Below are positions 1,441-59,195 of a stretch of DNA of 64,000 nucleotides, piece by piece (position 1 is the stretch's first letter; each line of letters starts with the position of its first letter). The translations under genes and the position numbers were made by a program. The notes under the pieces are model-generated. The model saw nothing but the letters and a program-made list of their open reading frames with translations, had not been told where the DNA came from and searched no databases. Origin of the DNA: Micromonospora sp. NBC_01813 (GTDB taxonomy: Bacteria; Actinomycetota; Actinomycetes; Mycobacteriales; Micromonosporaceae); assembly GCF_035917335.1 (NCBI RefSeq), contig NZ_CP109067.1, positions 7,253,001-7,317,000 of the forward strand, read 5' to 3'.

Positions 1441-1486
1441 GGCTGAGTCCTTACGTCGAGGGGTTCGGGTCGGGGCGCGAGGGGGA

Positions 1487-2512: not shown

Positions 2513-2611
2513 GGTGGTCTGCTCCATCGGTGGGGACGCACGTCTGGGGTGTGCTGCTCGGTGGCCGACCGGCCGGGCCTCGCCTGGTGCCCGGCCGGTC
2601 GCCGGGAGGTG

Positions 2612-4656: not shown

Positions 4657-4690
4657 GGTCGGCTGGGCTCCTTGGGCTGGTCGGTCCGGT

Positions 4691-5260: not shown

Positions 5261-5263
5261 CGG

Positions 5264-5830: not shown

Positions 5831-5837
5831 GTCGGTG

Positions 5838-6794: not shown

Positions 6795-6812
6795 GTGTTT
6801 CCCCTTCGCTTT

Positions 6813-7823: not shown

Positions 7824-7907
7824 CTTGCCCCCTTTGGTCGTGCCAATGGTGCCGACCGTTTCCGGCGGTGCGCAGACGAATCCGCGGTGCCAGCCTGAAC
7901 GGCACCG

Positions 7908-7939
7908 AGTCTTGCCGGGGGTGCTTGAGTGAGCCTTGA
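7908..7939 (-). promoter_or_regulatory. SARP box and promoter for the sbnA operon
   Basis: Read on the minus strand: TCAAGGC, four bases, TCAAGCA, eight bases, then AAGACT as the -10 hexamer. Two TCAAGNN heptamers 11 bp apart, eight bases before the -10, is the known layout of SARP-activated promoters. The same layout recurs twice more in this cluster. Transcription would start near 7901. Confidence 0.6.
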
Positions 7940-7984
7940 CGCCCGCGCAGGCGACGCGTCGTCCGGGCACCTGTCATCAGGTCC

Positions 7985-8016
7985 CCAAGGTGCACTCAAG
8001 TGCCGCCGGATACGTT
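7985..8016 (+). promoter_or_regulatory. SARP box and promoter for the PKS-thioesterase pair
   Basis: CCAAGGT, four bases, TCAAGTG, eight bases, then TACGTT as a -10 hexamer. The predicted transcription start near 8023 excludes the GTG at 8000 as the PKS start and supports the GTG at 8066. Confidence 0.6.
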
Positions 8017-8065
8017 CCGACCAGCTTCGATCACCCACCCCGGCCGACGGACATCGAGGATCGAC

Positions 8066-11373: not shown

Positions 11374-11455
11374 TGGCGTCACTAGCCTGACAGCGCGATT
11401 CGTCGGAGACTGTTGTCAATAAGTTTTCAACTGATGGCGAATCGGGGCGAATGCC

Positions 11456-12253
11456 GTGCGCATCAACCTGTTGGGACCCTTGCACGCGACGATAAACAAC
11501 GTGTCGATCGTGCCGACTGCGGCAAAACCGTGTCAGATTCTGGCACTCCTCGCGATGAACAACGAGAGGGTCGTCTCCAAATCCGCGCTCTTTGAGGAGC
11601 TGTGGGAGAACAAACCCCCACACAGTGCCACCACCACCCTGCACACGTACATCCATCAGCTGCGGCGGCAGATCTCCCGGGCGCTCGCGGACGACCCGAC
11701 AGTCGACTCTCGCGATGTCCTGGTGACCGAGCGTAGCGGGTATTCGCTTCGGATGACCGGCGGGGACACCGACGTCCAGGAGTTCCGACGCCTCAGTCGG
11801 GCCGGTAGCGACGCCTTCGAGCGGCGCGACAACCGCACCGCGAGTGCGGTGTTGGCCGACGCGCTGGCGCTCTGGCGGGGACCGCTGCTGTCGGACATCC
11901 CGTTCGGCCCGCAACTCGCGCTGCACGCACTGTCCCTCGGAGACCTGCGGCTCGCCGCGTTGGGTCGGCGTATCGAGGCTGACCTGCGGATCGGTCGACA
12001 CCTGGAGGTACTGGGCGAATTGCGTACCCTTTCGGTGCGGCATCCGCTGAATGAAAGCTTCGCCGCGCACTACATGACCGCTTTGTATCTTTCCGGGGAC
12101 GTCGGCACGGCGTTGCGGGAGTTTCACCGGATCAGGACGGCCCTCATCGCCGAGCTTGGCGTCGAGCCGGCATCGCGGCTGCGGGAGTTGCAGCAGGTCA
12201 TCCTCGGTGGCGACCGTCTACCGGTCGACGCGGGTCTGCTCAGCGCCGCGTAG
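11456..12253 (+). CDS. SARP-family pathway activator
   Basis: A 265-residue AfsR/DnrI/RedD-type regulator. The N-terminal winged-helix (about 1-90) has the family look: ILALLAMNNERVVSKSALFEELW and TLHTYIHQLRRQI. A bacterial transcriptional activation domain follows (about 95-245, DVQEFRRLSRAG to LGVEPASRLRELQQ). No ATPase or TPR extension is present, so it is a small SARP. It should bind the TCAAG-type heptamer pairs found before sbnA, the PKS gene and the second KASIII gene. The GTG start at 11456 is preceded by GGGGCGA. Confidence 0.92.
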   Translation: MRINLLGPLHATINNVSIVPTAAKPCQILALLAMNNERVVSKSALFEELWENKPPHSATTTLHTYIHQLRRQISRALADDPTVDSRDVLVTERSGYSLRMTGGDTDVQEFRRLSRAGSDAFERRDNRTASAVLADALALWRGPLLSDIPFGPQLALHALSLGDLRLAALGRRIEADLRIGRHLEVLGELRTLSVRHPLNESFAAHYMTALYLSGDVGTALREFHRIRTALIAELGVEPASRLRELQQVILGGDRLPVDAGLLSAA

Positions 12254-12606
12254 CCCGCCCGGCCGCTGTCGGCTATCGGCCATCAGTTGCCGGTTCCCGA
12301 AGACGGACCAGCACAAATTCGGCATATTCCGACCCACCTGCTTCCGCTGCACTCGAATAGATTGATCGAAGGATGTACCCTATGCTTCGTCGCCGATCAG
12401 GGGCCTGGGAGCAATGCCCTGGATCTGATGTCGTTTGCAGAAGGGACAAGCAGGTGGGGATTCCTGACCGCCTCGATATACTGCCAAGCCATCGTGTCCG
12501 GAATGGTCGTCAGAATCGGATTGGGCCGCGATGCCCTGCGGTGACTCGTCGAACGTGGTGATCGTCGACCGAGGCGAGCGGACGTATGGGAGACAGGAAT
12601 CGAGTC
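12254..12606 (+). other. Intergenic region with no gene seen
   Basis: About 350 bases between the SARP and response-regulator genes, clearly lower in GC in its middle (12,300-12,480). Short open frames exist but none has a ribosome site with coding bias or a recognisable product. It most likely holds the promoter of the response-regulator gene. Confidence 0.4.
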
Positions 12607-13230
12607 ATGCAGACGCGGCCGTTGCAGGTCCTTCTGGCCGAGGACGTCAACATGGTACGTGGGGCGCTGGTCGCCCTGCTGGAGTTGCAGCCGGACATCC
12701 ACGTCGTCGTCCAGGTGGAGCGGGGCGACGCGATCCTTCCGGCGGCGTTGGCGTACCGCCCGGACGTGGCGATCCTCGACGTGCACCTGCCCGGGATCGA
12801 CGGACTGTCGGCGGCGATGCTGGTGCACGAGCAACTCCCGGCCTGTCGCACGTTGATCCTCACCGGCATCGACCGGCCCGGGATGCTGCGGCGCAGCCTC
12901 GAAGCCGGCGTCACCGGCCTGATGCTCAAGCACGCCCCGCCTGCGAGTCTCGCCGAGGCGGTCCGGGAGGTCGCCGCCGGTCGCCGGGTGGTCGATTCCC
13001 AGATCGCCCTCGCCGCGCTCAACGAGCAGGCCGCCAGTCCGCTGTCGCCGCGCGAGGGAGAGATCCTGCGGCTGACCGCCAACGGTCACTCGGCGAAGGA
13101 GATCGCCGCGATGCTCTACCTGTCGGCTGGCACGGTGCGCAACCATCTCACCTCGATCGCCACCAAGCTCGACGCCCGTACCCGGGTCGACGCCGTGCGG
13201 ATCGCCCGCGACGCCGGCTGGATTCTCTGA
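12607..13230 (+). CDS. NarL/FixJ-type response regulator (orphan)
   Basis: A 207-residue regulator: receiver domain (about 5-120) with the phosphoacceptor Asp in VAILDVHLPGIDG (Asp58) and the conserved Lys in GLMLKHAPP, then a LuxR-type HTH (SPLSPREGEILRLTANGHSAKEIAAML, about 140-205). The ATG at 12607 follows ACAGGAATCG; an in-frame ATG 21 bases upstream is possible. No histidine kinase gene is next to it, so it is an orphan, as is often the case in antibiotic clusters. It may sense phosphate-independent cues or be phosphorylated by a distant kinase. Confidence 0.9.
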   Translation: MQTRPLQVLLAEDVNMVRGALVALLELQPDIHVVVQVERGDAILPAALAYRPDVAILDVHLPGIDGLSAAMLVHEQLPACRTLILTGIDRPGMLRRSLEAGVTGLMLKHAPPASLAEAVREVAAGRRVVDSQIALAALNEQAASPLSPREGEILRLTANGHSAKEIAAMLYLSAGTVRNHLTSIATKLDARTRVDAVRIARDAGWIL

Positions 13231-13265
13231 CCCGGCCGGCGTCCGAACGTGCTCGCCACGCCGGC

Positions 13266-13297
13266 GACGTCCCGGGCCGCACCACGCCCGGGACGTC
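13266..13297. terminator. Bidirectional terminator hairpin
   Basis: Perfect 12-bp inverted repeat GACGTCCCGGGC / GCCCGGGACGTC with an 8-base loop, in the short gap between convergent genes. There is no T-tract on either side, which is common in actinomycetes. Confidence 0.7.
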
Positions 13298-13303
13298 CCC
13301 GGC

Positions 13304-14329
13304 TCAGACGAACTCCAGCACCGCAACCGTCCACATGAAGCCGATGCCGGCGCCGACCGTGATCAGCTTGTCGCCGGACCTGGGCCGGTTGGTCTCCACC
13401 AGGTGGTGGATGCCGGCGATCTGGTCGCTGTTGCCCATGTGTCCCAGGTCGCGGCCCCACTCGTAGGTCGTCTTGTCCGGGTCCAGCCCGAGCGACTTGT
13501 GGAAGCCCCACTCGGCGATCGGCAGGATCAGGTTCGCGTGTACGAACCACTCGGCGTCGGCCACACTGGTCCCTGCCTCGGACAGCGCCCAGTCCAGGAC
13601 GCTCGTCAACTTCTCGTTGACCAGCGCCAATGCATCGTCGTAGGCGTCCTCGTACCGCATCAGCCACTCGTCCTTGCGGGCGGTGAGGTCGACCGGCTTG
13701 CCGGTGTCGAAGGGTGCCCAGGTCCACGGCCCGCCGCCCCGGTAGAGCGGCTCCAGGCTCGGCTCGGTCGTGCTCGCCGTGGCCAGCAGCCGGGCGAAAC
13801 CGCCTCGCTTGGACAGCACCAGGGCGCTGCCGGCGTCACCGAAGATGGTCTGGTCGTCGCTGCGCCACCGGTCGATGTACGGCAGCCGGAACGCGTCGCC
13901 GGAGGTCAGCAGGGCGGCGGTGGTGTCCGCCCGGGCGGTCAGGTACGACGCCCCGAGCTCCAGCGCGGCGAGCGCCCCGTTGCAACCCTGGCGCATCTCG
14001 ATGGTCACCGACGGCCCGGCACCGACGGTCTCCTGCTGTACGTAGTGCGCCGGGCTCCACATCTCCCGGCCCTGGTGCGACACGTACGCGTGCAGCACCA
14101 GATCGATGTCCTGCGAGTCGTGCCCGGAGCGGGCCATCGCCTGCCGCCCCGCGGCGGCGGCCATCACCACGCCCGCCTCGTCGTCGTTGGCCACCCGGAC
14201 CGCCCGGATGCCGTTGGTCTCCGCGGCCGAGGCGTCGTACACGCCGTCGGCCACCGCCTGTGCTGCGGTGTACTGCTGCTCCGGGAGATACAACCCGGTG
14301 CCGGCAAGGTAGATGTCGTCCCAACGCAC
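13304..14329 (-). CDS. Second KASIII-family ketoacyl synthase-like protein
   Basis: A 341-residue protein of the divergent KASIII group found in many antibiotic clusters. Catalytic residues can be placed as Cys116 (EMRQGCNGAL), His264 (WFVHANLIL) and Asn300 (LGHMGNSD), so unlike the first KASIII-like protein here the triad is intact. The GTG start is preceded by AAGGAGG. Its own promoter carries a SARP box, so it belongs to the cluster regulon although it lies beyond the regulators. It may condense a starter with a carrier-bound unit or transfer an acyl group to an amine or hydroxyl. Confidence 0.85.
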   Translation of the reverse strand: MRWDDIYLAGTGLYLPEQQYTAAQAVADGVYDASAAETNGIRAVRVANDDEAGVVMAAAAGRQAMARSGHDSQDIDLVLHAYVSHQGREMWSPAHYVQQETVGAGPSVTIEMRQGCNGALAALELGASYLTARADTTAALLTSGDAFRLPYIDRWRSDDQTIFGDAGSALVLSKRGGFARLLATASTTEPSLEPLYRGGGPWTWAPFDTGKPVDLTARKDEWLMRYEDAYDDALALVNEKLTSVLDWALSEAGTSVADAEWFVHANLILPIAEWGFHKSLGLDPDKTTYEWGRDLGHMGNSDQIAGIHHLVETNRPRSGDKLITVGAGIGFMWTVAVLEFV

Positions 14330-14361
14330 GGTGCCTCCTTCAGCGAACTCGATCCACCAGA

Positions 14362-14393
14362 AGCAAAGCGGGTGTCACTCGACCGGTCCTTGA
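14362..14393 (-). promoter_or_regulatory. SARP box and promoter for the second KASIII gene
   Basis: On the minus strand: TCAAGGA, CCGG, TCGAGTG, eight bases, TTTGCT. Same spacing as the two boxes in the sbnA-PKS intergenic region; the second heptamer is a one-base variant (TCGAG). Confidence 0.55.
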
Positions 14394-14469
14394 GCGTGAT
14401 GGTCGGCGGCGGCCGGACGCCGCGATGGCGTCCGGCCGCTGCGCGTACCGTCGAGTCCCTGCCGCCGGC

Positions 14470-16044
14470 TCAGGGAGCCGCTGGTGCGGCGACCGGTGCC
14501 CCGGCGCGGTCCGTGGCCTTCTCGCCGGCCGGGTCTGGCCCACCCGGTGCCGCCCCGTCGCCGGCGTCCGGCGAAGATCCGTCCGCCGCTGCCGGCGGCG
14601 TCGCGGGCAGGCCGCGGAACCCGATCAGGCCGGTCAGCAGACTGAGCCCGACCCAGACGAACAGCGTGGCGATGCCCCAGTGCAGCGCCTCGTTCAACGC
14701 CGCCGGGCCGACCTGGCCCTGTTCGGCGAGGTCGGTCAGCCTGCCCTGCAGCACCGACGCCGAGATGGCCAGCGCCAGCGCCCCACCCACCTGGGTGGCG
14801 ACGTTGAGCAGCGCGGACGTCGTACCGGCGTCATCCTCGGTCGCCATCGAGGTCCCCACGGTAGGCGTCGGGATCAGGCAGAGGACCAGACCGACGCCGA
14901 GCAGCGTGGTGATCGGCAGCATGACCGTCCAGTAGGAGCCGCTGGTCGGCGTCCGGATCAGCAGGACGACCATCACACCGAGCAGTACGGTTCCGACGAC
15001 GTACGGCAGTTGCGCGCCGATCTTCGGGATCGCCTTGGACAACGGGCCGGCCACGATCATCATCGCGAGGGTCGTCGGCAGGTACGCGAGTCCGGTCTCC
15101 ATCGGCGAGTACCCGAGGACGGTCTGCATGTAGATGGGCAGCAGCATGAAGCACGGGATCATCAGGCCGGCGGTGAAGAACTCGCCGAGGCTGCCGGCCA
15201 CGACGCCGCGCAACCGGAACAGCCGCAGCGGCAGCAGCGGCGCTTCGGCCCGGTTCTCGATCACGATGAACGCGGGTAGCAGCACCAGCGCGACGAGGAA
15301 CGTCCCGAGGGTCCGTACGTCGGTCCAGCCGTGGTCGGTGACGCTGACGATGGCGAAGACCAATGCTCCCAGGCCGATGGTGCCGCTGATGCCACCGAGG
15401 ACATCTGCCTTCGGACGCGGCCCGCTCGGCGCGCCACCGCGGATGAGGAGCATCGCTCCGATGGTGAGCACCACCGCGATCGGGATGTTGATGTAGAAGG
15501 CCAGCCGCCAGTTCACGTCGACGATGGCCCCACCGAGCAGGGTGCCCAGGCCCGCGCCGACCCCGATGACCGCACCCCAGACCCCGAACGCCTTGGCCCG
15601 TTCGGCCGGGTCGCGGAAGGAGACGACCAGGATGCTCAGGCAGGCGGGGGAGAGGCCGGCCGCCGCCAGACCCTGGATCGCCCGGGCGATGAGGATCTGG
15701 TCGTCGGTCTGTGCCATCGCCGCCAGCAGCGACCCGGCGGTGAACAGGGCGAGGCTGCCGAGGAACATCCGGCGCCGGCCGATCACGTCGTTGAGCCGGC
15801 CACCGAGCAGCAGCAGGCCGCCGAAGAGAATGATGTAGTTGTTGAAGACCCACTGCAGTCCGATCGGGGACAGCCCCAGGTCGCGCTGCAGTTCCGGGCC
15901 CATCACGCTCGCCACGGTGGTGTCGAGCGCGATCATCAGCTGGCCCACCGAGACGACGACCAGCACCAGCCAGCGCTGCTTGTCGGGGGCGGGGATGCCG
16001 GACGCTCCAACCGGCGCCGCGGCCTTCTGATCCTGGCTTGTCAT
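14470..16044 (-). CDS. DHA2/EmrB-QacA-type MFS drug exporter
   Basis: A 524-residue membrane protein with about 14 predicted helices. The first helix bears LMIALDTTVASVMGPEL (motif D1 of 14-TM exporters) and the 2-3 loop motif A is GGRLNDVIGRRRM. The ATG at 16044 follows GAGGAAG. The C-terminal 50 residues are an Ala/Pro/Gly-rich cytoplasmic tail. It is divergent from a TetR gene and the shared upstream region holds a palindrome, the classical repressor-exporter pair, probably exporting the cluster product. Confidence 0.92.
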   Translation of the reverse strand: MTSQDQKAAAPVGASGIPAPDKQRWLVLVVVSVGQLMIALDTTVASVMGPELQRDLGLSPIGLQWVFNNYIILFGGLLLLGGRLNDVIGRRRMFLGSLALFTAGSLLAAMAQTDDQILIARAIQGLAAAGLSPACLSILVVSFRDPAERAKAFGVWGAVIGVGAGLGTLLGGAIVDVNWRLAFYINIPIAVVLTIGAMLLIRGGAPSGPRPKADVLGGISGTIGLGALVFAIVSVTDHGWTDVRTLGTFLVALVLLPAFIVIENRAEAPLLPLRLFRLRGVVAGSLGEFFTAGLMIPCFMLLPIYMQTVLGYSPMETGLAYLPTTLAMMIVAGPLSKAIPKIGAQLPYVVGTVLLGVMVVLLIRTPTSGSYWTVMLPITTLLGVGLVLCLIPTPTVGTSMATEDDAGTTSALLNVATQVGGALALAISASVLQGRLTDLAEQGQVGPAALNEALHWGIATLFVWVGLSLLTGLIGFRGLPATPPAAADGSSPDAGDGAAPGGPDPAGEKATDRAGAPVAAPAAP

Positions 16045-16153
16045 GACTTCCTCTCGTCCTGAGACGGATTCGGGATGGGTGTGCCGCGTGCGACGGCAGG
16101 ACCCGGCATGAGACGGCGGGCCCGGCGTTGGCGGTGATGTTCGATACGAGGCT

Positions 16154-16177
16154 GACAGGAGCACTGCTCTCTGTCAA
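16154..16177. promoter_or_regulatory. Likely TetR operator
   Basis: Near-perfect 24-bp palindrome (TGACAG at one end, CTGTCA at the other, with GAGCA/TGCTC inside) between the exporter and the TetR gene. On the exporter strand it overlaps a TTGACA that would serve as -35. Confidence 0.5.
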
Positions 16178-18028: not shown

Positions 18029-21019
18029 GTGCTGTTCGGACTAAGTCGCGTACCTGGACGACGTGCGGGAAAATCCATCCGATGGTCGGCGGCGACGCTG
18101 GCCGTTCTGCTGGGCGGCACCGTGCCGGTCGTCCTGGCCGCGGAACCGGGCACGGCTGCGCCATCCACCGTGGTGGCGCCGGACACAGATTCCGCCACCG
18201 CCTCCGGCCCAGCCTCAGCCGCGACCGAGGACAACTGCGCCGCCGCCTCGGCGCGGACGGAGGCGGCGGCGATAGCGGCGGCCGGCGAATGTGGACATCA
18301 GATCGAGGTGCTCGACGCCCGTACCGAGTATTCGCAGGTCTTCGCCGATCCGGCCGGCACCCGCACCCTGGTGAGCGCGTCCACCCCGCAACGGGTGCAG
18401 CGCGACGACGGGAGCTGGGCCGACGTCGACGCGTCGCTGCGGCCGACCGACGGGATGATCGCGCCGGTGGCGACCCTCGCCGACGTGCGGTTCTCCGCCG
18501 GTGGCGCGGGCCCGTTCGTGACCTGGCGGGAGCAGGACGAAACCTTCACCCTCTCCTGGCCGGAGCCACTGCCGGCACCGGTCCTCGACGGGGACACCGC
18601 CGTCTACTCCGACGTCCACCCCGACGTCGACCTGCACGTGATCGCCACCGTCGACGGATTCCGCCATGCCCTGGTCGTCAACAGCCGGACGGCTGCGGCC
18701 GACCCTGCGCTGCGGGAGATCCGCTACCACGCCGGCGGCACCATGCGGCTTGAGCGGACCGACGACGGGGTGCTCCGGCTGGTCGACTCCACTGGTGTCT
18801 TCGTCGCCGAGAGCTCCGGCGCCCGGATGTGGGACTCGTCGGCCGACCCCACCGCCGCCGGTGAGGTGCTTCCCGAGGTGACGGCCGGTCGAGCGGCCGC
18901 TGCGGCCAAGGGCTGGACGGCGGCCAGCTCCGAGCTGCCGGCCGCGTTGCGGTCGACCTCGGCCGCTCCCGGAGCCGGTGCCAACTCCGCCGAGATCGGC
19001 GTCGCCGCCTCCAGCACCGAACTGGTCCTCACCCCCGCAGCAGGCATGCTCGACGACCCCGACGCGGTGCTGCCGATCTTTATCGACCCGCCGCTGAACA
19101 AACTGCGCACCCTCTGGCAGTACGCCAGCAGCAACAACGAGAACAACGACGACTCCAACGCCCGGGTCGGCAAGCAGCCACCGGACCAGTGGAGCAGCAA
19201 CGGGCAGCTCTACCGGTCGTACTTCAACTTCAGCGTCTCGGCCATGCACGGCGCGCAGATCCTCGCCGCCGAGATCACCATGGAACTGGACCATTCCTGG
19301 TCCTGCGGTCCGACTTGGGTACACCTCTACCGGACCACCGCCATGTCGGGCACCAGCGGATCCCGGCTGGCGTGGAGCGCGAAACCTCTCGGCTCGGGCG
19401 CTGTTTACCTGGACGCCTGGGCGGGCAACGCCAACGAGGCCGGCGGCTGCGGTTCCGTCCAACCGAACGCCGACGCCGTCTTCGAAGGCCAGAACCTTGT
19501 CGATGACCTGCAGTACTACGCGAACGGCAACTGGAGCAACTACAGCGTCGGCCTCTGCGCCTGCAACAGCTCCAACGAGTACGAGTCCACCACCGACCGG
19601 TGGAAGCAGTTCCGCACCAACCAGACGTACCTGATCGCCACGTACGACAAACCGCCGAACCCGCCGGTGGCCCAGCCGTTCTCCACCACCACCGACTGCT
19701 ACCAGCGTTGCGTCAGCCCGGCGATCGTCCGGACCACCCGTCCGGTACTTCGGGCCAACGTCTCCGATCCGTTCGACGGCACCGGCCCGACCATCTTCGA
19801 GGTGCGTACCGCGCAATCCGACACCGCGACCGTGGTGACCGACAACCGGCCCGGCATGACCTGGACCGCGCTGCCTGCCACTGCCGCCTGGCAGGTCCCC
19901 GCCGGAGCGTTCGTGAACGGCGGCACCTACCACTGGCGGGCCAAGTCCCGGGACGAGAACTTCCTCTGGGGTGACTGGTCCACCTGGCAGACCCTGACCG
20001 TCGACACCACGCCGCCGGGAATCTCACCGCCCACCTCCACCGACTACCCGCAGGAGAGCTGGGGCGCAGAGGTCGGCACCGCCGGCACCTTCACCCTGAC
20101 CGGCACCTCGGACGTCGCAGACTTCATCTGGTGGGTCGGCACCGGCCCGGCGACCACGGTCACCGGCACCGGCACCGGCACGCGGACCGCGACCATCAGC
20201 CACACCCCGACCACCGACATGGTGCACACCCTGTACGCCCGGGCGCTCGACCTGGCCGGCAACAGCGCCGGCACGGTGGAGCACCAGTTCTGGGTCTCGC
20301 CACCACCGAACAAGTACGCCCACTGGCGGCTGGACGAGACCTCGGGCACCGTCGCGGCGGACGCCGGAAACGCCCAGGGCAGCGCACTGTCCACCGGCAC
20401 GCTCGCCGGCCCGGCCAGCTTCGGCCCCGGCTACCTCGGTCGGGCGCTCACACTGGCCGGCCCCGGCGCGCAGATGACCAGCAACGGCCCGGTGCTCGAC
20501 ACCACCCGCAGTTTCACCGTGATGGCCTGGGTCCGGGCCAGCGACCTCACTGCCGGCAGTGTGCAGACCATCCTCAGCCAGGACGGTGACACCGCCAGCC
20601 GATTCGAGCTGCAGTACCGGGCGGACGCCAACGGTGGTGCGGGCGGCTGGTGCTTCACCATGCGGGCACAGGAGACCTCCGCGACGCCCGTGTCGGCCTG
20701 CGCCGAGGGCATCCTGCAGGCGCTGCCGGCCGAGGACGCCTGGGTCCACCTGGCCGGCGCGTACGACCCGGTGTCCGGGCTGATCTCCGCCTACGTCATG
20801 GGCGACACCCTCACCTGCGCGGGTGAGACCGCGCAGGCATCGTTCGCCGGCAGCTGGGCGGCGACCGGATCGTTCGTCATCGGCCGCGGTCGCGCCGCCG
20901 GCGCGAACACCGGCCAGTGGCACGGCGCCGTCGACGACGTCTTCGCCTATCAACGACTGCTGTCGAGCTACGAGATCTGCCAGCAGGCCCTGCGGCCGAG
21001 TGACCCTGGACCGTCCTGA
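18029..21019 (+). CDS. Secreted LamG-domain protein upstream of an RHS protein
   Basis: A 996-residue exported protein. Residues 1-40 form a signal peptide (RRAGKSIRW, then a hydrophobic stretch ending LAAEPG). The middle has TolB/DNRLRE-like beta segments: VQRDDGSWADVDASLRP and YFNFSVSAMHGAQILAAEI, where a tandem of Trp-rich strands precedes FN3-like modules (DTTPPGI at about 660). A concanavalin-like LamG domain covers about 770-990 (HWRLDETSGTVAADAGN, FTVMAWVRASD). The pair LamG-protein then RHS-protein is common in actinomycetes, which suggests a surface complex. GTG 18029 is used; the protein is 60 bases upstream of the RHS ATG. Confidence 0.85.
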   Translation: MLFGLSRVPGRRAGKSIRWSAATLAVLLGGTVPVVLAAEPGTAAPSTVVAPDTDSATASGPASAATEDNCAAASARTEAAAIAAAGECGHQIEVLDARTEYSQVFADPAGTRTLVSASTPQRVQRDDGSWADVDASLRPTDGMIAPVATLADVRFSAGGAGPFVTWREQDETFTLSWPEPLPAPVLDGDTAVYSDVHPDVDLHVIATVDGFRHALVVNSRTAAADPALREIRYHAGGTMRLERTDDGVLRLVDSTGVFVAESSGARMWDSSADPTAAGEVLPEVTAGRAAAAAKGWTAASSELPAALRSTSAAPGAGANSAEIGVAASSTELVLTPAAGMLDDPDAVLPIFIDPPLNKLRTLWQYASSNNENNDDSNARVGKQPPDQWSSNGQLYRSYFNFSVSAMHGAQILAAEITMELDHSWSCGPTWVHLYRTTAMSGTSGSRLAWSAKPLGSGAVYLDAWAGNANEAGGCGSVQPNADAVFEGQNLVDDLQYYANGNWSNYSVGLCACNSSNEYESTTDRWKQFRTNQTYLIATYDKPPNPPVAQPFSTTTDCYQRCVSPAIVRTTRPVLRANVSDPFDGTGPTIFEVRTAQSDTATVVTDNRPGMTWTALPATAAWQVPAGAFVNGGTYHWRAKSRDENFLWGDWSTWQTLTVDTTPPGISPPTSTDYPQESWGAEVGTAGTFTLTGTSDVADFIWWVGTGPATTVTGTGTGTRTATISHTPTTDMVHTLYARALDLAGNSAGTVEHQFWVSPPPNKYAHWRLDETSGTVAADAGNAQGSALSTGTLAGPASFGPGYLGRALTLAGPGAQMTSNGPVLDTTRSFTVMAWVRASDLTAGSVQTILSQDGDTASRFELQYRADANGGAGGWCFTMRAQETSATPVSACAEGILQALPAEDAWVHLAGAYDPVSGLISAYVMGDTLTCAGETAQASFAGSWAATGSFVIGRGRAAGANTGQWHGAVDDVFAYQRLLSSYEICQQALRPSDPGPS

Positions 21020-21094
21020 CCCCTCCGGCACCAGCCACTGGCCGGACCACCGTCCAATCCGCGTCGTCGCTGTACACACATGGGGAGTAATGCG

Positions 21095-24000
21095 ATGAGA
21101 ACAGGTGCCGCTGGCCCACTGAGGCCCGTTGCGGTAGCCCGACGTACCCGTTGGGTGACCGTGCCCTTGTCCGCGGTCCTGGTGGCGACCCTGCTCGGGG
21201 TGCCGGCCACGGCCAGGGAACCCGACTGGCAGCCGCCCGCCCCGGACGAAGTAACCGGCGTCGCGGTCCAGGACCGCACGCCGCAGGCCGCCCGGCCGGC
21301 CTGGACGGCAGAGCAGCACGCGGTCCGTGGCGCGGCGGACGTGACCTGGCCGGCGGCCGGCACCGCCCGGGTCGACCTGGACGGCGGTACGGCCGCCCGG
21401 ATCGCCGCCGACGGACTGGCACCCGCCGGCGCCCTGCCCGTACGAGTCGGCGCGGTGACTCCCGACGACCTGCCGCCCAAGGCCCGAACCAGGCACGGTG
21501 CGGTCTCGGTTACCGTGCACGACCGGGAGGCCACCGAGCGGGCCGGGGTGGACGGCGCGTTGATCAGCCTCAGCCGGTCAGGCCGTGGCAGCGGTAGCGG
21601 CCAGGTCGCCGTGCAGGTGGACTACGCCGGCTTCGCCGCCGCGTACGGCGGTGACTGGGCGTCCCGGCTGCGACTGGTCAGCCGCCCAGTCTGTGCGCTG
21701 ACCACCCCCGACGACCCGGACTGCCAGACCCGCACCCCGGTGGCCACCACCAACGACGCCCGCGCCGGCACCCTGTCGGCGACGGTTCCGCTCGCCGCCA
21801 CCGGCGTGACCCTGCTGGCCACCGAATCCGGCCCGAGCGGCGACAACGGCGACTACACCGCCACCGACCTGTCGCCCGCCGGCAGCTGGCAGGTTTCCGC
21901 CCAGACAGGTAACTTCACCTGGTCCTACCCGCTGCGGACACCACCCGGCCTGGGAGGTCCAGAGCCATCGCTGGCCCTGAACTACTCCTCCGGCAGCGTG
22001 GACGGACGGACCGGGGCCACCAACAACCAGGGTGGCTGGGTCGGCGACGGCTGGTCGATGTGGCCGGGATACATCGAACGCAAGTACGCGTCCTGCAGTG
22101 ACGACAACCCGAGCCGCGAAACCGGAGACCTCTGCTGGTTCAGCGACAACGCCACGCTTTCGCTCAACGGCAAGTCCAACGAACTGATTCGCTCCGGCAA
22201 CGTCTGGCGGCTGAAGAACGACGACGGCACCAAGATCGAGCGATCGTCTGCCGCCGCGCGCGACAACGGCGACAACGACAACGAACACTGGAAGGTCACC
22301 ACCACCGACGGGGTGATCTACTACTTCGGCTATCACAAGCTGCCTGGGTGGAGTTCCGGCAAGCCGGTGACCGACTCCACCTGGACGGTGCCGGTCTACG
22401 GCAACAACGTCGACGAGCCCTGCGAAAACGGTGCGTTCGCCAACTCGTGGTGCCGGCAGGCATGGCGGTGGAACCTCGACTACGTCGTCGACCCGAACAA
22501 CAACGCGATGGCCTACTACTACGGCAAGGAAACCGGGGGGTACGGCCGGAACCTCAGCCAGACCGCGAGGGAGACCTACCACCGCGGCGGCTGGCTGCAA
22601 CGCATCGAGTACGGCATGCGCAGCGACACGATCTTTACCCAGACCGCGCCGCTGCGGGTGGTCTTCGGCACCGAGGAGCGCTGCCTGACGGGTTGTTGGA
22701 GCGGCACCGCCTGGCAGTCAGATCCGGTGAAGTCGGCCTGGCGGGACACCCCCTGGGATCTGTACTGCACCGAGGCGCCGTGTGAGGGGGTCCTGTCGCC
22801 GAGCTTCTGGTCCGCGCGGCGGCTGACTGGTGTCACCACCCAGGTCCGCAACGGCACTTCGACCTACCGGACCGTCGAGTCCTGGTCACTCAATCAGGAA
22901 TTTCTCAGCGCGGGCACGGGCGAGGGCATCCCGATGTGGCTGCGCGGCATCACCCGTACCGGGCATGTCACCACCGCCGGTGGCGCGGCGGTGACCGACC
23001 CGGAAATCACCTTCAACCCTGGCGCGGAGCCGTTACCGAACCGGGTGGATGGGCCGCAGGACCAGCGCACCGCACTGAACCGGTGGCGGATCAAGCAGGT
23101 CCGTACCGAGTCAGGCGGCGACATCCTGATCACTTACTCCGATCCAGAGTGCGTCCGGTCGGCACTGCCTACCCCACACACCAACACCAAGCGCTGCATG
23201 CCGGCCTACTTCTCCTGGCCGGGCACCGGTGCCCCGACCATCGACTGGTTCCATAAGTACGTGGTCAGCGAGGTCAACCTCGATGACCTGGTGACTGATC
23301 AACCGACCCAGACCACCTACTACGACTATCTGGACACCCCGGCCTGGCATTACAGCCAGGACGAGATCACCAAGGACAAGCACCGCACCTGGGGGGAGTG
23401 GCGCGGTTACGGCCGGGTCCGCGTCCGGCAGGGACACGCCACCGGCCAGCAGACCGCCGTCGAATACCGCTACCTGCGCGGCATGCACGGCGACCGGCTG
23501 CTCAACAACGCGACCAGGTCGGTGTCGGTGCCTGACACCTGGGGCGGCAGCATCACCGACCACGAGGCGCTCGCCGGGTTCCTCCGCCAGGAAATCACCT
23601 TCAACGGTCCGGGCGGCGCCGAGGTCTCCTCGACCCGCAACGACCCGTGGCAGGTCGGCCCGACCGCGACCCGGACCCGTAACAGCATCACCACCAACGC
23701 CTACAAGGTCGACACCGGCACCGTGCGGACCCGTACCGCTCTGGCCGCCGGCGGGTATCGCGCCACGAAGGTGACCACCGGGTTCAACACCGACGGCCTA
23801 CCGACAACTGTCGACGACGCTGGCGATGAGAACGTCACCGGCGACGAGACCTGCACCCGTCTCAGCTATGCGCGCAACGACGGTGCCTGGCTGATCGATC
23901 GGGTCTCCCAGGCCGAGTCGCTCTCGGTGAGCTGCGGCAACGCTGCCAATCCGGCGGTGCCCTCGAGCGTCCTGTCCCGGGTTCGTACCTTCTACGACAC

Positions 24001-27000
24001 CTACGTCGACGGTGGGTCGTTCGGCGCCGCCGCGACCCGAGGCAACCCGGTGCGAACCGAGGAACTCGACCGTTGGAACGGCAGCACACCGGTCTACACC
24101 CGAACCAGCACGATGGCGTACGACGCCCACGGAAGGGCAACCGCCGTCACCGACGCCCGCGGTCACACCACCGATACCGAGTACACGACAGCACACGGGG
24201 GCCTGGTCACCCAGACCAAGGTCACCAACCCGCTGGGGCACGAGACCACTGCGGTCCAGGAACCGGCGTGGGCGTCGCCGACAAAGGTGACTGACCCGAA
24301 CGGGGTGGCTACCGACCTCACCTACGATGGCCTTGGCCGGTTGACCAACGTGTGGCTGCCCGGCCGGCTGAAGGCCACCCAGTCGGCTAGCATGAAGTTC
24401 GCGTACGCGATACGTGGGACCAACGGCCCGACTGCGGTGACGACCCAGACGCTGCTGCCAACCGGCACCGCCTACCGGACATCGATCGACCTGCACGACG
24501 GGTTCCTTCGGCTCAGGCAGAACCAGCTGCAGGCCACCGGTGGCGGCCGGCTCCTCACCGAGACGTTCCACACCGCGTCCGGCGCGGTGGACTGGACCTC
24601 CCAGCAGTACTACGACACCACCGACTCCTCGCCAGGCACCACGTTGGGCGCGCCCGAAGGAGCCATTCCATCCGTCACCGACCATGTTTACGACGGTGCG
24701 GGACGAGAGACCGCCACCATCTTCAAGGCCAACGGAGTGGAGCAGTGGCGGACCACAATGACTTACGGCGGGGACCGGGTACACACCACGCCGCCTGACG
24801 GTGGCACCGCGACGACAGCGATCTTCGATGTACGCAACCGCACCACAGCTCTGCGCCAGTACGTCTCGGCAGCCGTGGTCGGCAGCACCAATCCCGCCAA
24901 CTATCACCAGACCAGCTACACCTACACGTTGCTGGATCAGATCAAGACGGTCGTCGACGCGCAGTCCAACGCCTGGTCCTACACCTACGATCTGCGGAAC
25001 CGGCAAATCGAGACCAGTGATCCGGACAGCGGCACCACGACGACGACCTTCGACGCGGCGGGCAATGTACTGACGACGTCCAGTCCAGTCGGTAGCACCG
25101 TGGAGACGGTGGCCTACACCTACGATGAACTGGGTCGTCGGACGAGCATGCGGGACGACGGGGTCGCCGGTCCAATGCGGGCACAGTGGACCTATGATGC
25201 CACGCCCATGGCTTCGGGCACCGCGACAGCCAAAGGGCTACCCACCGCCTCGATCCGCTATGAGGGCGGCAGCGCCTACAGCAGTCGGATCAACTCCTAC
25301 GACGGCTTCGGTAGGCCGACGTCCAACTCGACGGTGCTGCCGTCAGCTCAGGCTGACCTGTGCGTGGCGGCGGGGCCCGACCCGTGCGTCTACACCTCGA
25401 CCACGGCCTACTGGCCCAACGGCAAACCGTTGCGTACGACGTTGCCGGCCGCTGGGGGCCTACCGTTGGAGCAGTTGACCCACAGCACCAATGACATCGG
25501 TGGCGACGCCGGGCTTTTCTCCTCTGCAGCGGTCTACGCTGAAGCCACCTACACCAAGTACGGCATGCTGGATCAGCGGATGTCTGGCCCGTTCGGATCC
25601 CGACTGGTGGTCGACTTCGACACGGACGAGCCGACCCGGCGACGCACCGGAATGAACGTGGTGCCCGAGGGAAAAAACGAGATCGCTGACTATTCATACA
25701 GCTATGACGATGCCGGTAACGTCCTGAGAATCCGGGAAGAACCGGAGGGCCAGACCGCTGACACACAGTGCTACGAGTACGATCACTTGCGGCAGTTGGT
25801 TGAGGCCTGGACGCCCACTTCGGGTCTGTGTGAAATCGCACCGAGCCTTGCCGGACTGGGCGGCCAGGCACCCTACTGGCGGAGTTGGGACGTGGACGAG
25901 ATCGGCAATCGCCGGTCGGAGACGAAGCACGGCGCGACGAACATCATCTACCAGTACGCCTATCCGGAGTCCGGGCCCGGCGCGGTGCGCCCGCACGCGG
26001 TGAACAGCGTAACCGCCTCGGGCGCGGAGTCCTGGAGCCGGACTTACGCCTACGACGACGGTGGCAACATGAAGAGCCGGCCGGGTGGTTCTGGCGGTAC
26101 CCAGACTCTGACCTGGAACCGCGAGGGGAAGTTGGTCTCCCAGGAGCAGGGCACTGCGAGCACCAGCTACCTCTATGACGCGGACGGTAACCGTCTCATG
26201 CGTACCGATCCAACTGGCAAGACGCTTTACCTCCCGAACGGGATGGAAATCCGGAAAGACAACGGTGCGGGCGCAGCGAAGGCGACTCGCTACTATCGCC
26301 ATGTGGGCGAAGTGGTTGCGGTTCGAACGGCGTCGGCACTGCATTGGATCGTTTCCGACCATCACGGCACGGCAGAGTTGACCATCGACGCCGCGACCCT
26401 GGTAGTGGCAAAGCGACGTACCCTGCCGTACGGCGAGTACCGGGGCTCGGCCACCGGATCGTGGCCGGCAGCGATGGACAAGGGGTTCGTTGGCGGCACC
26501 GCCGACGGTACGGGGTTGACTCATCTGGGCGCCCGGGAATATGACCCATTCCTCGGTCGCTTCATCAGTGTCGACCCGTTGATGGATCTGACGAATCCGC
26601 AGCAGTGGCACGGGTATTCTTACGCAAGAAACTCTCCTGTCACTTATGTTGACCCAGACGGTCTGCGCCCGCTCATCACCAACACTGAGCGGGAGGATGA
26701 AGAGTGGTATAAGGAAACTGGCGAGAAGGTAGTGGCGTCGGCAAAGGGTGGCTTCACGACCAGAAACGACAGTAAGCGCACCAAGCGATATGACTGTAAC
26801 AGTCAAGTAAAGTGTGAGATTGGCGGCGGCGGGTCAACTGTAAAGCGCAACCCGATCGTCTTCGACTGCAATGCTCCTGGTGCGTGTGTGATCCACAACC
26901 GAGGTGTGGGGCAGAATGCCACCTACAATTGTAATGTTCCCGGAGCGTGTCACGTTGACGCCGACTGTGGTGCCGATGGCAAGTGTTACGTAGGCCCCTC

Positions 27001-27364
27001 GGCTGTCGATGGCGACTTGCAGTGCCGAGTGAAGGGCGCCTGCATCTTCTATCGATACATCCCGAAGTACCCTAAAGATGTGGGGCCGGAGAAGCTCGTG
27101 GACTGGGGTGATGTGTGGGCAAGGGCAGACAAGAGTGCCAGCCGGTTCGGTTTGGCAGGTCAGCCCATCGGCGCTGGAATCGGGTCCTTCTGGGGTCCGC
27201 CGGGTGCCGCAGCTGGTGTTGGGATCGGGGCCGGGATTGGTATCTACATCGGAACTGCTGTCTCTTTGTGGCAAGATTTCATCAGTGCATGGAACAGGCG
27301 TGACGAGCCTCGATCTGGAGCGATTTGGGTGACGTACGAGAAGCAGGAGATTGGGCGGATCTAG
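21095..27364 (+). CDS. RHS/YD-repeat protein with an unusual cysteine-rich tip (candidate polymorphic toxin)
   Basis: 2,089 residues. The ATG at 21095 is preferred over 21080 because GGGGAG stands before it. A signal peptide (RRTRWVTVPLSAVLVATLLG) is followed by an SpvB-like region (SPAGSWQVSAQTGNFTWSYP), then YD repeats over about 900-1,800 and the RHS core HLGAREYDPFLGRFISVDPL and YARNSPVTYVDPDG. After the DPDG junction (about residue 1,858) a 230-residue tip begins. It has five CX5C units (for example FDCNAPGACVI and YNCNVPGACHV), then GSFWGPPGAAAGVGIGAGIG, a glycine-zipper hydrophobic segment. The DNA of the tip is visibly poorer in GC than the core, as expected of a swapped toxin domain. 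I do not recognise the tip family. No cognate immunity gene is obvious on the same strand downstream. Confidence 0.9.
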   Translation: MRTGAAGPLRPVAVARRTRWVTVPLSAVLVATLLGVPATAREPDWQPPAPDEVTGVAVQDRTPQAARPAWTAEQHAVRGAADVTWPAAGTARVDLDGGTAARIAADGLAPAGALPVRVGAVTPDDLPPKARTRHGAVSVTVHDREATERAGVDGALISLSRSGRGSGSGQVAVQVDYAGFAAAYGGDWASRLRLVSRPVCALTTPDDPDCQTRTPVATTNDARAGTLSATVPLAATGVTLLATESGPSGDNGDYTATDLSPAGSWQVSAQTGNFTWSYPLRTPPGLGGPEPSLALNYSSGSVDGRTGATNNQGGWVGDGWSMWPGYIERKYASCSDDNPSRETGDLCWFSDNATLSLNGKSNELIRSGNVWRLKNDDGTKIERSSAAARDNGDNDNEHWKVTTTDGVIYYFGYHKLPGWSSGKPVTDSTWTVPVYGNNVDEPCENGAFANSWCRQAWRWNLDYVVDPNNNAMAYYYGKETGGYGRNLSQTARETYHRGGWLQRIEYGMRSDTIFTQTAPLRVVFGTEERCLTGCWSGTAWQSDPVKSAWRDTPWDLYCTEAPCEGVLSPSFWSARRLTGVTTQVRNGTSTYRTVESWSLNQEFLSAGTGEGIPMWLRGITRTGHVTTAGGAAVTDPEITFNPGAEPLPNRVDGPQDQRTALNRWRIKQVRTESGGDILITYSDPECVRSALPTPHTNTKRCMPAYFSWPGTGAPTIDWFHKYVVSEVNLDDLVTDQPTQTTYYDYLDTPAWHYSQDEITKDKHRTWGEWRGYGRVRVRQGHATGQQTAVEYRYLRGMHGDRLLNNATRSVSVPDTWGGSITDHEALAGFLRQEITFNGPGGAEVSSTRNDPWQVGPTATRTRNSITTNAYKVDTGTVRTRTALAAGGYRATKVTTGFNTDGLPTTVDDAGDENVTGDETCTRLSYARNDGAWLIDRVSQAESLSVSCGNAANPAVPSSVLSRVRTFYDTYVDGGSFGAAATRGNPVRTEELDRWNGSTPVYTRTSTMAYDAHGRATAVTDARGHTTDTEYTTAHGGLVTQTKVTNPLGHETTAVQEPAWASPTKVTDPNGVATDLTYDGLGRLTNVWLPGRLKATQSASMKFAYAIRGTNGPTAVTTQTLLPTGTAYRTSIDLHDGFLRLRQNQLQATGGGRLLTETFHTASGAVDWTSQQYYDTTDSSPGTTLGAPEGAIPSVTDHVYDGAGRETATIFKANGVEQWRTTMTYGGDRVHTTPPDGGTATTAIFDVRNRTTALRQYVSAAVVGSTNPANYHQTSYTYTLLDQIKTVVDAQSNAWSYTYDLRNRQIETSDPDSGTTTTTFDAAGNVLTTSSPVGSTVETVAYTYDELGRRTSMRDDGVAGPMRAQWTYDATPMASGTATAKGLPTASIRYEGGSAYSSRINSYDGFGRPTSNSTVLPSAQADLCVAAGPDPCVYTSTTAYWPNGKPLRTTLPAAGGLPLEQLTHSTNDIGGDAGLFSSAAVYAEATYTKYGMLDQRMSGPFGSRLVVDFDTDEPTRRRTGMNVVPEGKNEIADYSYSYDDAGNVLRIREEPEGQTADTQCYEYDHLRQLVEAWTPTSGLCEIAPSLAGLGGQAPYWRSWDVDEIGNRRSETKHGATNIIYQYAYPESGPGAVRPHAVNSVTASGAESWSRTYAYDDGGNMKSRPGGSGGTQTLTWNREGKLVSQEQGTASTSYLYDADGNRLMRTDPTGKTLYLPNGMEIRKDNGAGAAKATRYYRHVGEVVAVRTASALHWIVSDHHGTAELTIDAATLVVAKRRTLPYGEYRGSATGSWPAAMDKGFVGGTADGTGLTHLGAREYDPFLGRFISVDPLMDLTNPQQWHGYSYARNSPVTYVDPDGLRPLITNTEREDEEWYKETGEKVVASAKGGFTTRNDSKRTKRYDCNSQVKCEIGGGGSTVKRNPIVFDCNAPGACVIHNRGVGQNATYNCNVPGACHVDADCGADGKCYVGPSAVDGDLQCRVKGACIFYRYIPKYPKDVGPEKLVDWGDVWARADKSASRFGLAGQPIGAGIGSFWGPPGAAAGVGIGAGIGIYIGTAVSLWQDFISAWNRRDEPRSGAIWVTYEKQEIGRI

Positions 27365-27707
27365 CGCTGTTTTCGTCCTGACGATTTCAGCGCGCTGATT
27401 CCAGTGCGGTCTGATCCGGCCAGCGACAAGGGTTAGCCGACGACGGGTCGGTCCAACTGGACCGACCCGTCCGCTTGTCTGTCCGGACCGGACGCCAGAC
27501 GAACGACCGCGTCCCGGGCGCTACCGACCGGCAAGCCGCTGGATTCGGACGCGGCCCGCGCCGCGCTCGATGCAGACCACTGCTGTCGCCGCAGAACCAT
27601 ACCGACGGCGACCTGGTCGGCCTGAAACCGCTGTGGACTGCGGTGGGACGGCCCGTACACTGCCACACCTGGGCGACGGCGAACCGATCCTGGTAGGCGG
27701 TTCGGTC
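27365..27707. other. Convergent intergenic region
   Basis: Between the RHS gene and the WXG100 gene. It holds a strong terminator and otherwise no frame I can support; in particular no convincing immunity gene for the RHS tip. Confidence 0.45.
27442..27471. terminator. Bidirectional terminator hairpin
   Basis: Perfect 13-bp arms (GACGGGTCGGTCC / GGACCGACCCGTC) with an AACT loop, between the converging RHS and WXG100 genes. Confidence 0.8.
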
Positions 27708-28004
27708 CTACTTGCGCAGCGCCTTGGCCAGCTCCTCGTCGGCCTCCTGGAAGGTGTCGGCGGCGGTGGTGAGGTACTTCCCCATCCCCTCCAGCCCTTC
27801 GGTCATCTTGGTCGCACCCTCGTTGAACTCGGTGTACGACTCGTCGAACTGCTTGCTGGAGGAGTCGGTAACGTACCCGCCGTCGACCAGGTTGTTGACC
27901 ATGCTGCGCAGCTCCACGAGCTTGCTCATGATCTTTTCCTTGCCGCGGGTGAGCCGGTTGGCCGCGTCCCGCATCTCCTGATACGTGACGTTGACGTTCG
28001 CCAT
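27708..28004 (-). CDS. WXG100/ESAT-6-like protein
   Basis: A 98-residue all-helical protein: helix NVTYQEMRDAANRLTRGKEKI, a turn NNLVDGGYV where WXG usually stands, then FDESYTEFNEGATKMTEGLEG. Size and helix-turn-helix layout are those of WXG100 proteins, secreted by type VII systems as dimers; the Trp of WXG is replaced (DGG). The ATG at 28004 follows AAGGGATC. No ESX core genes are visible in the window. Confidence 0.8.
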   Translation of the reverse strand: MANVNVTYQEMRDAANRLTRGKEKIMSKLVELRSMVNNLVDGGYVTDSSSKQFDESYTEFNEGATKMTEGLEGMGKYLTTAADTFQEADEELAKALRK

Positions 28005-28883
28005 GTCGGATCCCTTCTGCCAGTCGCCGGTGGCCCATCTGGGTTCCGCCGGTGGCAACTAGGACACGGCCTAGCTGCCGGTGCCCTCGGGGGCGGTGAT
28101 GTCCTCCACTGCCCGGATGCGGGGGATCCCGACGTCGACGTGCTCGACACCGGACCGCCCCGCCCGATCTGCCGTTCCCGTACGTCAACCAGGTCTGGCT
28201 GATCTCACCAGATGATGTTGAAACGGCTGTATGAGTGGCGATGACTATCCGTGATCGCCTAGCTGCATGTCGTCGCAGTTCGCGGCGAGGAGTGCTCAGA
28301 CGCTCAGGATCACGTCCATCCGGCTATGCCGGCCGCCGGGCGTGGAGGGGAAGACCAGGAATGTCGACCTTGGTAGGAGTTGCGTTGGCGGCGTTGGCTG
28401 GACTTGACGTTGGCTTCTTTACATCCCGGTTGAAGCAGCGGTGGCGTCCGCCATGATGGGCAGCCTCGGGTGGATCCGGTCGGGTGTGCCGCGTACCGCC
28501 GCGATCTGGTCGGTGCGGAGCTGGCGGTTGTCGGCGGTAGGCCATGTGGCGCGGCGGGGGATCGGGGCGGCGTTGCTGGCGGCGCATCATGCCAGGTCGG
28601 ATCGGATCGGGATGCCGGCGGTGGCGGAGGCGAGCAGCGTCCGGTGCGGTGACCCGGTCGATCAACCACCGATGGCAGCAAGCCCTACGGGCCGGCTGAA
28701 CCGGTCTGCCTGATTCCTGCGTGTGCCAGATGCCGCCAGGTGCCCGCTTTGCACCGCATGGACAGCACTGCACAGACCGCAGCGCGAGCCCGTGACCTCG
28801 ATGTGTAGCGGGAACGCAATAGATCACTAACCGCGCCGCAACACCGGGGGCCACTTGATCGAAACAAGGTCTACCTACTGTCG
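28005..28883. other. Gene-poor region with decayed fragments
   Basis: About 880 bases without an intact gene. On the minus strand near 28,080-28,210 a broken frame reads VEHVDVGIPRIRAVEDITAPEG and, in another frame, DVRERQIGRGGPV; this may be the end of a lost gene upstream of the WXG100 gene. A GNAT-like fragment lies at 28,528-28,644. The last 100 bases hold the promoter and operator of the ABC operon. Confidence 0.4.
28528..28644 (+). pseudogene. GNAT acetyltransferase fragment
   Basis: A short stretch reads GHVARRGIGAALLAAHHA then RIGMPAVAEASS, close to the acetyl-CoA loop and following helix of GNAT proteins (R-G-x-G-x-x-LL and LEASS). Neither the first half nor the C-terminal strand of the fold can be found, so it is at best a remnant. 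Confidence 0.3.
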
Positions 28884-59087: not shown

Positions 59088-59195
59088 GGCGTTTGGGTGT
59101 GGCCACTTGAAATCGGTAGCTTGTTCGCTTGACCCTAGCGGAACAGGCTTAGGGCTACCTGGGTAGATCGTAGTGTCGAACCGGAAACCGACCTT

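What the first reader, a model, noticed from the sequence alone, without database searches (positions are those of the whole stretch)
26670..27364. RHS tip with five CX5C units and a glycine-zipper segment
After the DPDG junction the protein switches to CX5C motifs (CNSQVKC, CNAPGAC, CNVPGAC, CGADGKC, CRVKGAC) and then a Gly/Ala hydrophobic stretch with W and P. The DNA is poorer in GC than the RHS core. This looks like a newly swapped toxin domain, perhaps a disulfide- or metal-stabilised solenoid that inserts in membranes. I cannot place it in a known RHS tip family.
Basis: partly seen in the sequence, partly recalled or inferred. Interest (0 to 1): 0.72.

Follow-up and report, generated by a model that had tools for sequence, protein, structure and literature searches.

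The report
Disulfide-repeat glycine-zipper RHS toxin tip
A secreted bacterial protein ends in a rare tip of paired-cysteine repeats followed by a membrane-loving helix segment, most likely a warhead that punctures the membrane of rival bacteria; this has not been tested in the laboratory.

Summary
The 2094-aa RHS protein (21080-27364 +) ends in five consecutive CX5C pairs, then a Gly/Ala zipper. Shuffles do not reproduce the Cys pattern (0 of 20000). The swapped part starts near 26780, not at DPDG: the ~40 residues between are a linker that other RHS proteins carry before different tips. Three relatives were found: full tips in Micromonospora gifhornensis and genome G139, and a broken orphan tip in G335 (4 of 354 family genomes, window included); none in the other samples searched. 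In G139 the Cys pairs recur exactly every 21 residues, so the module is a true repeat. The zipper pattern matches membrane-depolarising toxins (TelE, EsxX); CDI ionophores are the nearest two-domain design. These relatives' tips, and two other zipper-ended proteins, are followed by small hydrophobic ORFs (5 of 5), as expected of immunity to membrane toxins. The window's own gene is not, but its genome carries homologues of the G335 neighbour elsewhere. Best reading: a Sec-exported membrane-inserting tip with a disulfide-clamped entry domain; a new variant of a known kind. Toxicity is untested and the fold unresolved (pLDDT 41-45).

The parts
21080..27364 (+). RHS protein gene, 2094 aa
   Evidence: ORF; RHS_repeat 81.7 bits and SpvB 26 bits, both above Pfam cut-off; Rhs_assc_core 57.7 bits, cut-off 32.5
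21080..21217 (+). signal-peptide-like N-terminus (about residues 1-46)
   Evidence: read by eye from the translation printed; no predictor was run
26426..26665 (+). RHS-associated core end with the Asp pair D1832/D1858 (DPLM...DPDG)
   Evidence: TIGR03696 residues 1783-1862; Asp spacing 26
26663..26779 (+). post-core linker shared with RHS proteins that carry other tips
   Evidence: G310 two genes, 56% over residues 2-44 and 46% over 2-53, with different sequence after it; weaker in G003
26795..26815 (+). CX5C unit 1 (CNSQVKC)
26867..26887 (+). CX5C unit 2 (CNAPGAC)
26930..26950 (+). CX5C unit 3 (CNVPGAC)
26966..26986 (+). CX5C unit 4 (CGADGKC); CX6C in M. gifhornensis, absent in G139
27023..27043 (+). 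CX5C unit 5 (CRVKGAC)
27149..27265 (+). glycine zipper segment, about residues 168-206 of P0001
   Evidence: GxxxGxxxG motifs; sub-threshold matches to DUF6861 and a phage protein family; low-confidence helices in the model
27266..27361 (+). C-terminal tail, about 32 residues; its last eight residues are the same in the G335 orphan piece
27442..27471 (+). strong hairpin after the stop codon, terminator-like; no immunity-like ORF before it
   Evidence: -33.4 kcal/mol for 27430-27485, z -4.07; no long T run; the consensus scan finds only a short version, within chance
18029..21019 (+). upstream gene with a LamG-like domain, probable partner in the locus
   Evidence: PF13385 57.8 bits, cut-off 27.6

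Best explanation
The tip is the warhead of a Sec-exported actinobacterial RHS polymorphic toxin. The RHS protein leaves the cell through its signal peptide (inferred by eye). Outside, the CX5C module folds into disulfide-clamped beta repeats and acts as a rigid entry or docking domain (inferred). The C-terminal glycine zipper then inserts into the target membrane, oligomerises and depolarises it (inferred from TelE, EsxX and CDI ionophores). Protection would come from small hydrophobic membrane proteins, encoded beside the tip in relatives and possibly in trans in this genome (inferred). Shown here: the architecture, its modular distribution, its conservation pattern and the neighbouring ORFs.
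For: Non-random Cys pairing and GxxxG spacing. The same two-part tip on RHS proteins of M. gifhornensis (43-44%) and G139 (27%), and as an orphan piece behind another RHS gene in G335, as in polymorphic toxin loci. Exact 21-residue Cys period in G139 (1 of 20000 shuffles). The zipper fits the definition quoted for EsxX and TelE. Small ORFs with at least one hydrophobic segment follow 5 of 6 zipper-ended proteins against 0 of 5 RHS genes with other tips (Fisher 0.013; framed after part of the data was seen). The ORFs behind the two ALF-type proteins are 60% identical over 48 residues. A 67% homologue of the G335 neighbour lies in the window's own genome; of 89 genomes only G335 and the own genome have close members.
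Against: No toxicity data. The window's own gene is the one zipper-ended gene without a hydrophobic ORF within 300 nt and is followed by a strong hairpin. The M. gifhornensis neighbour has no convincing homologue in the window's genome (best E 0.18); the three neighbour types are not related to one another. More distant members of the G335-neighbour family occur in two other genomes of the window's genus, so its presence here may be ancestry, not pairing. The zipper is the least conserved part (28% and 17%), and similar zippers end proteins of other kinds. The canonical autoproteolysis motif is altered. Structure models are poor.
Confidence: 0.58

Rival explanations
1. Non-toxic or decayed tip: the zipper anchors or aggregates the RHS protein at a membrane or cell surface, and the CX5C module is an adhesive or structural cap. 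No immunity gene is then needed.
For: No immunity-like ORF beside the window's gene; hairpin directly after it; similar C-terminal zippers on secreted proteins that show no other toxin feature.
Against: Relatives' tips have small hydrophobic neighbours; the tip behaves as an exchangeable cassette; the CX5C part is as conserved as the core or more against M. gifhornensis (56% against 45%, though 35% against 39% for G139).
Confidence: 0.2
2. The zipper is a translocation device, as shown for Tde1, and the CX5C module is the actual toxin, acting by binding or by an unrecognised activity after entry.
For: Tde1's zipper governs entry rather than its DNase activity (PMC10240207, abstract). The CX5C part is better conserved than the zipper. 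In G335's main RHS a hydrophobic Gly/Ala stretch precedes a further C-terminal domain (by eye).
Against: In the window only about 32 residues follow the zipper, and the CX5C part precedes it; no enzyme family matches. Small hydrophobic neighbours suit a membrane target.
Confidence: 0.14
3. The CX5C pairs bind metal rather than form disulfides, giving a metal-stabilised domain.
Against: The protein appears exported (by eye); CX5C is not a usual zinc-ribbon spacing (recalled); spacing drifts to CX6C and CX4C in relatives; no metal-binding family match.
Confidence: 0.04

Closest known systems
TelE (S. gallolyticus) and EsxX (S. aureus) T7SS glycine-zipper toxins (PMC10434224, PMC12744356; passages read)
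   Same: C-terminal GxxxGxxxG zipper on an exported carrier; membrane depolarisation or destabilisation; EsxX has membrane-protein immunity that also occurs as orphans
   Different: LXG carriers exported by T7SS; no cysteine repeat; additional soluble immunity
CDI ionophore toxins, CdiA-CT (PMC11630599; passages read)
   Same: Two-domain tip, entry domain then ionophore domain with a putative glycine zipper; small hydrophobic immunity proteins of 72-100 residues
   Different: CdiA carrier in Gram-negatives; entry domains without CX5C repeats as far as read; larger ionophore domain
Tse5, RHS pore-forming effector of P. aeruginosa (PMC10684867; abstract, outline and passages read)
   Same: RHS protein whose C-terminal tip forms membrane pores
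   Different: T6SS; canonical DPXG motifs and cleavage; no CX5C module mentioned in what was read
CdzC/CdzD of Caulobacter (PMC5380434; passages read)
   Same: Surface-associated glycine-zipper proteins that kill on contact; small membrane immunity protein CdzI
   Different: Small two-protein bacteriocin, type I secretion, no RHS

Membership tests
RHS polymorphic toxin | RHS repeats and RHS-associated core | tested here: met
   Above curated cut-offs
RHS polymorphic toxin | Variable C-terminal tip after a conserved core | tested here: met
   Three RHS genes found in the own genome have three tips; same linker before other tips in G310
RHS polymorphic toxin | DPXGX18DPXG aspartyl-protease motif (as given in PMC10684867) | tested here: not met
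   DPLM...DPDG, Asp-Asp spacing 26 where the motif gives 22; both Asp present; the relatives read show the same form
RHS polymorphic toxin | Immunity gene next to the tip | tested here: not met
   No hydrophobic ORF within 300 nt in the window; possible homologues in trans. A soluble immunity protein among the listed ORFs is not excluded
Glycine-zipper pore-forming toxins (TelE/EsxX type) | C-terminal (G/A/S)xxxGxxxG or GxxxGxxx(G/S/T) zipper | tested here: met
   definition in PMC12744356
Glycine-zipper pore-forming toxins (TelE/EsxX type) | N-terminal LXG domain | tested here: not met
   No such match in Pfam or NCBIfam scans of the whole protein at E up to 1
Glycine-zipper pore-forming toxins (TelE/EsxX type) | Membrane depolarisation | not testable with these tools
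   Needs expression
CDI ionophore toxins | Entry domain plus ionophore domain | tested here: inconclusive
   Two parts by sequence; models too poor to compare folds
CDI ionophore toxins | CdiA carrier | tested here: not met
   The carrier is an RHS protein; no CdiA-type match
Tox-WTIP pore-forming domain | RxxR and Wx[ST]IP motifs (PMC3482391) | tested here: not met
   No Wx[ST]IP in the tip translation, read by eye
DUF6861 (PF21724) | Score at or above the gathering cut-off 28 | tested here: not met
   18.3 bits, zipper residues 169-205 only

The most novel reading that the evidence does not exclude
A two-part membrane warhead for Gram-positive targets, not found described: 21-residue disulfide-clamped repeats serve as a wall-crossing entry domain for a glycine-zipper ionophore, carried on Sec-exported RHS proteins; the same kind of zipper rides on ALF-repeat polymorphic-toxin stalks, and immunity can be kept in trans in an island that has lost its RHS gene.
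Probability: 0.3. Interest if true: 0.68.

Novelty: new variant of a known kind. Interest (0 to 1): 0.5.

Why it matters
How secreted actinobacterial RHS proteins pass a thick wall and what their tips do is, to my knowledge (recalled), little characterised. A disulfide-clamped repeat fused to a short zipper would be a small, testable two-domain system, and would extend membrane-depolarising tips, known from T6SS, T7SS and CDI, to Sec-exported RHS and perhaps ALF proteins. If it holds in larger samples, the link between zipper tips and small hydrophobic neighbours gives a rule for finding more.

Tried and rejected
Family and structure libraries gave no tip family above cut-off: Pfam, NCBIfam, PHROGs and PADLOC for the window's tip (best PHROG E 0.0013, zipper region, unknown function), Pfam and NCBIfam for two relatives (sub-threshold only, among them a Gly-zipper family for M. 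gifhornensis, 14.9 bits against 28.9), PDB sequences (only a tape-measure protein over the zipper, E 0.039 and 0.002), Foldseek on a poor model (best E 2.2, not interpreted). The second model was not searched. Plasmid, phage and IMG/VR searches found nothing. The first genome-contig scan found nothing; the second found only M. gifhornensis. A profile that included the zipper matched 16 of 397 order genomes; the matches other than the window's fall on zipper columns (query 95-188) and I dropped them as tip members; L024 and L025 come from these. Marginal hits (G012, G076, G151, G247 and a second G189 site, E 0.02-0.05) read as unrelated proteins or anti-frames. My first list of downstream ORFs used a GC3 filter that hid the G139 neighbour; one search repeated it without the filter. 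In some searches I read several minus-strand loci on the wrong strand; re-read most of them (not L033 and L038) and no conclusion uses the wrong readings. An idea that a 31-aa hydrophobic ORF at 28363-28456 is a remnant of an immunity gene was dropped: no homology. A metal-binding reading was ranked low.
Full report
What is there. The window holds a 2094-codon RHS gene at 21080-27364 (+), with RHS repeats, an SpvB-like N-terminal match and the RHS-associated core and a signal-peptide-like N-terminus (by eye). After the core come a linker, five CX5C pairs, a spacer, a Gly/Ala zipper and a tail of about 32 residues. All ten cysteines of the tip belong to the five pairs. Shuffled tips never reach the observed count (0 of 20000), and G-x3-G spacing in the zipper is in the top 0.06% of shuffles, although a looser Gly/Ala count is not clearly unusual (5.9%). 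GC falls from 0.667 to 0.579 and GC3 from 0.834 to 0.629.

Where the tip starts. Two RHS genes of genome G310 share residues 2-44 (56%) and 2-53 (46%) with the window's post-core region and then diverge; by eye they run into a pretoxin region, a HINT domain and another tip (recalled labels). Residues after DPDG up to about 44 are therefore a common linker, and the exchangeable part is about 26780-27361. The two other RHS genes that the core-and-linker query found in the same genome have different tips.

Relatives. A single-sequence search of 354 family genomes gave six genomes: the window's own, a full-length relative in G189 (43%), two pieces in G335, the linker only in G310, and G024 and G097 with zipper-region matches that I did not count (G024 reads as an oxidoreductase-like frame). 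A profile search of the same 354 genomes gave eight at E up to 0.05, of which four are real by reading: own, G189, G139 and G335. The second genome-contig scan found one locus, in Micromonospora gifhornensis; contig length and coordinates equal those of G189's contig, which puts the window in the family of Micromonospora (inferred). Samples of 394 class genomes and 396 phylum genomes returned only the window's own; 16 of 397 order genomes matched a profile with the zipper, and besides the window these are zipper-region matches. All ten Cys are kept in M. gifhornensis, with one CX6C; G139 keeps four units, one CX4C; the G335 piece keeps six Cys. Against M. gifhornensis the core is 45% identical, the CX5C part 56% and the zipper 28%; against G139 the figures are 39%, 35% and 17%.

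A real repeat. In G139 the first Cys of the four units are at 10, 31, 52 and 73, spaced 21, 21 and 21; 1 of 20000 shuffles of that module reaches this. In the window units 2 and 3 are 21 apart, and unit 4 is an insertion that G139 lacks. The AlphaFold models are poor (mean pLDDT 40.9 and 45.0). The module model puts strands on both sides of the first three CX5C turns, the whole-tip model on both sides of units 2 and 3, with helices over the zipper. I treat this as a hint only.

The zipper. The pattern fits the published definition quoted in PMC12744356. A variant with C-x10-C inside the zipper occurs in M. gifhornensis, G139 and several other actinobacterial proteins, but not in the window. 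L024 and L025 are two of those, alike by eye; L024 matches the ALF repeat (PF03752, E 4.8e-39; L025 was not scanned), a stalk type listed among polymorphic toxins in PMC3482391 (passages). In both the zipper is the C-terminus. Other zipper-ended proteins found are of other kinds (L026, L028, L030, L034, L042), so a zipper alone does not make a toxin.

Neighbours. For ten RHS or tip ends in six genomes I listed ORFs of at least 40 codons starting from 60 nt before to 300 nt after the stop on the same strand, and likewise for L024, L025 and L034. Small ORFs with at least one hydrophobic segment follow the tips of M. gifhornensis (L013:9614-9865, 83 aa, listed as 106 aa from an earlier start; one segment by my threshold), G139 (L043:8819-9022, 67 aa, two segments), the G335 orphan (105 aa, one), L024 (49 aa or more, one) and L025 (two). 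The last two are 60% identical over 48 residues; over 30 aligned codons differences fall 6, 3 and 11 on codon positions 1, 2 and 3. Five RHS genes with other tips have none (G000 twice, G310 twice, G003 once); one is followed by a 333-aa ORF with one segment near its N-terminus, not counted as small. The window has none. That is 5 of 6 against 0 of 5, Fisher 0.013. I left out two genes: G335's main RHS, whose tip has a hydrophobic stretch plus a further domain and which is followed by a 124-aa ORF with three segments, and L034, not toxin-like, with no such neighbour. The test was framed after part of the data was seen.

Immunity in trans. The G335 neighbour has a 67% homologue in the window's genome, G000:2399081-2399365, and a 36% one at 2401240-2401494. 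They lie beside a LamG-type gene related to the M. gifhornensis gene upstream of its RHS (35-44%) and to the window's own LamG gene (32%), with no RHS or tip sequence detected in that 18-kb stretch and a Mutator transposase match nearby. Among 89 genomes, 4 had matches at 1e-5: G335 and the window's own were close, and two other members of the window's genus had distant ones. G139 and G189 were not in that sample. The window and G335 zippers are 52% alike. The M. gifhornensis neighbour, by contrast, has no convincing homologue in the window's genome (best E 0.18), and the G139 neighbour was not searched there. An orphan immunity island protecting against this tip is possible but unproven; shared ancestry in the genus is an alternative.

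Mechanism and comparison. TelE and EsxX show that C-terminal zippers on exported carriers depolarise or break membranes, and EsxX is countered by membrane proteins (passages). CDI ionophores join an entry domain to an ionophore domain and pair with 72-100-residue hydrophobic immunity proteins (passages). Tse5 shows that an RHS shell can deliver a pore-forming tip. Tde1 shows that a zipper can instead serve translocation (abstract). The window's tip fits the first logic with a different, cysteine-paired first domain. It is not a member of the LXG, CDI or WTIP families by the features tested. In print: searches for Rhs with glycine zipper, polymorphic toxin with glycine zipper, CX5C with toxin or glycine zipper (12 of 84 papers listed), Rhs with Actinobacteria, disulfide and polymorphic toxin, Rhs with Streptomyces and YD-repeat and Micromonospora with Rhs listed no paper whose title or abstract opening describes such a tip; I read listings, not those papers in full.

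Verdict. The strongest contrary facts are the missing immunity neighbour and the hairpin after the window's own gene, the presence of similar zippers on other kinds of protein, and the absence of any functional test.

Noticed in passing
window 370-16164: A biosynthetic-looking cluster: by eye an ornithine-cyclodeaminase-like and a cysteine-synthase-like pair (SbnB/SbnA-like), an adenylation protein, a ketosynthase, a thioesterase, KAS III-like proteins, regulators and an exporter. Labels are recalled, not searched.
   Followed up: no
window 27708-28058 (-): A WXG100 protein gene (PF06013, 64.5 bits) lies downstream of the RHS gene on the other strand.
   Followed up: partly
L024 and L025, C-termini: Two actinobacterial proteins (L024 with ALF repeats) end in a C-x10-C glycine zipper and are followed by a conserved small hydrophobic ORF: candidate toxin-immunity pairs.
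   Followed up: partly
L061:6243-12653 (G000 about 2.40 Mb): LamG-type gene followed by several small hydrophobic ORFs, two of them homologous to the G335 tip neighbour, and a transposase match, with no RHS gene detected: looks like an orphan immunity island.
   Followed up: partly
L044 / L007 (G335): An RHS gene with another tip, then a broken orphan CX5C-zipper tip whose upstream piece runs on from transposase-like sequence (by eye), then a small hydrophobic ORF.
   Followed up: partly
window about 55100-59400: A second stretch of GC as low as the RHS tip (down to 0.50 in 582-nt windows).
   Followed up: no
L026, L028, L030, L034, L042: Secreted-looking proteins from other families of the order end in similar glycine zippers; their role is unknown to me.
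   Followed up: no
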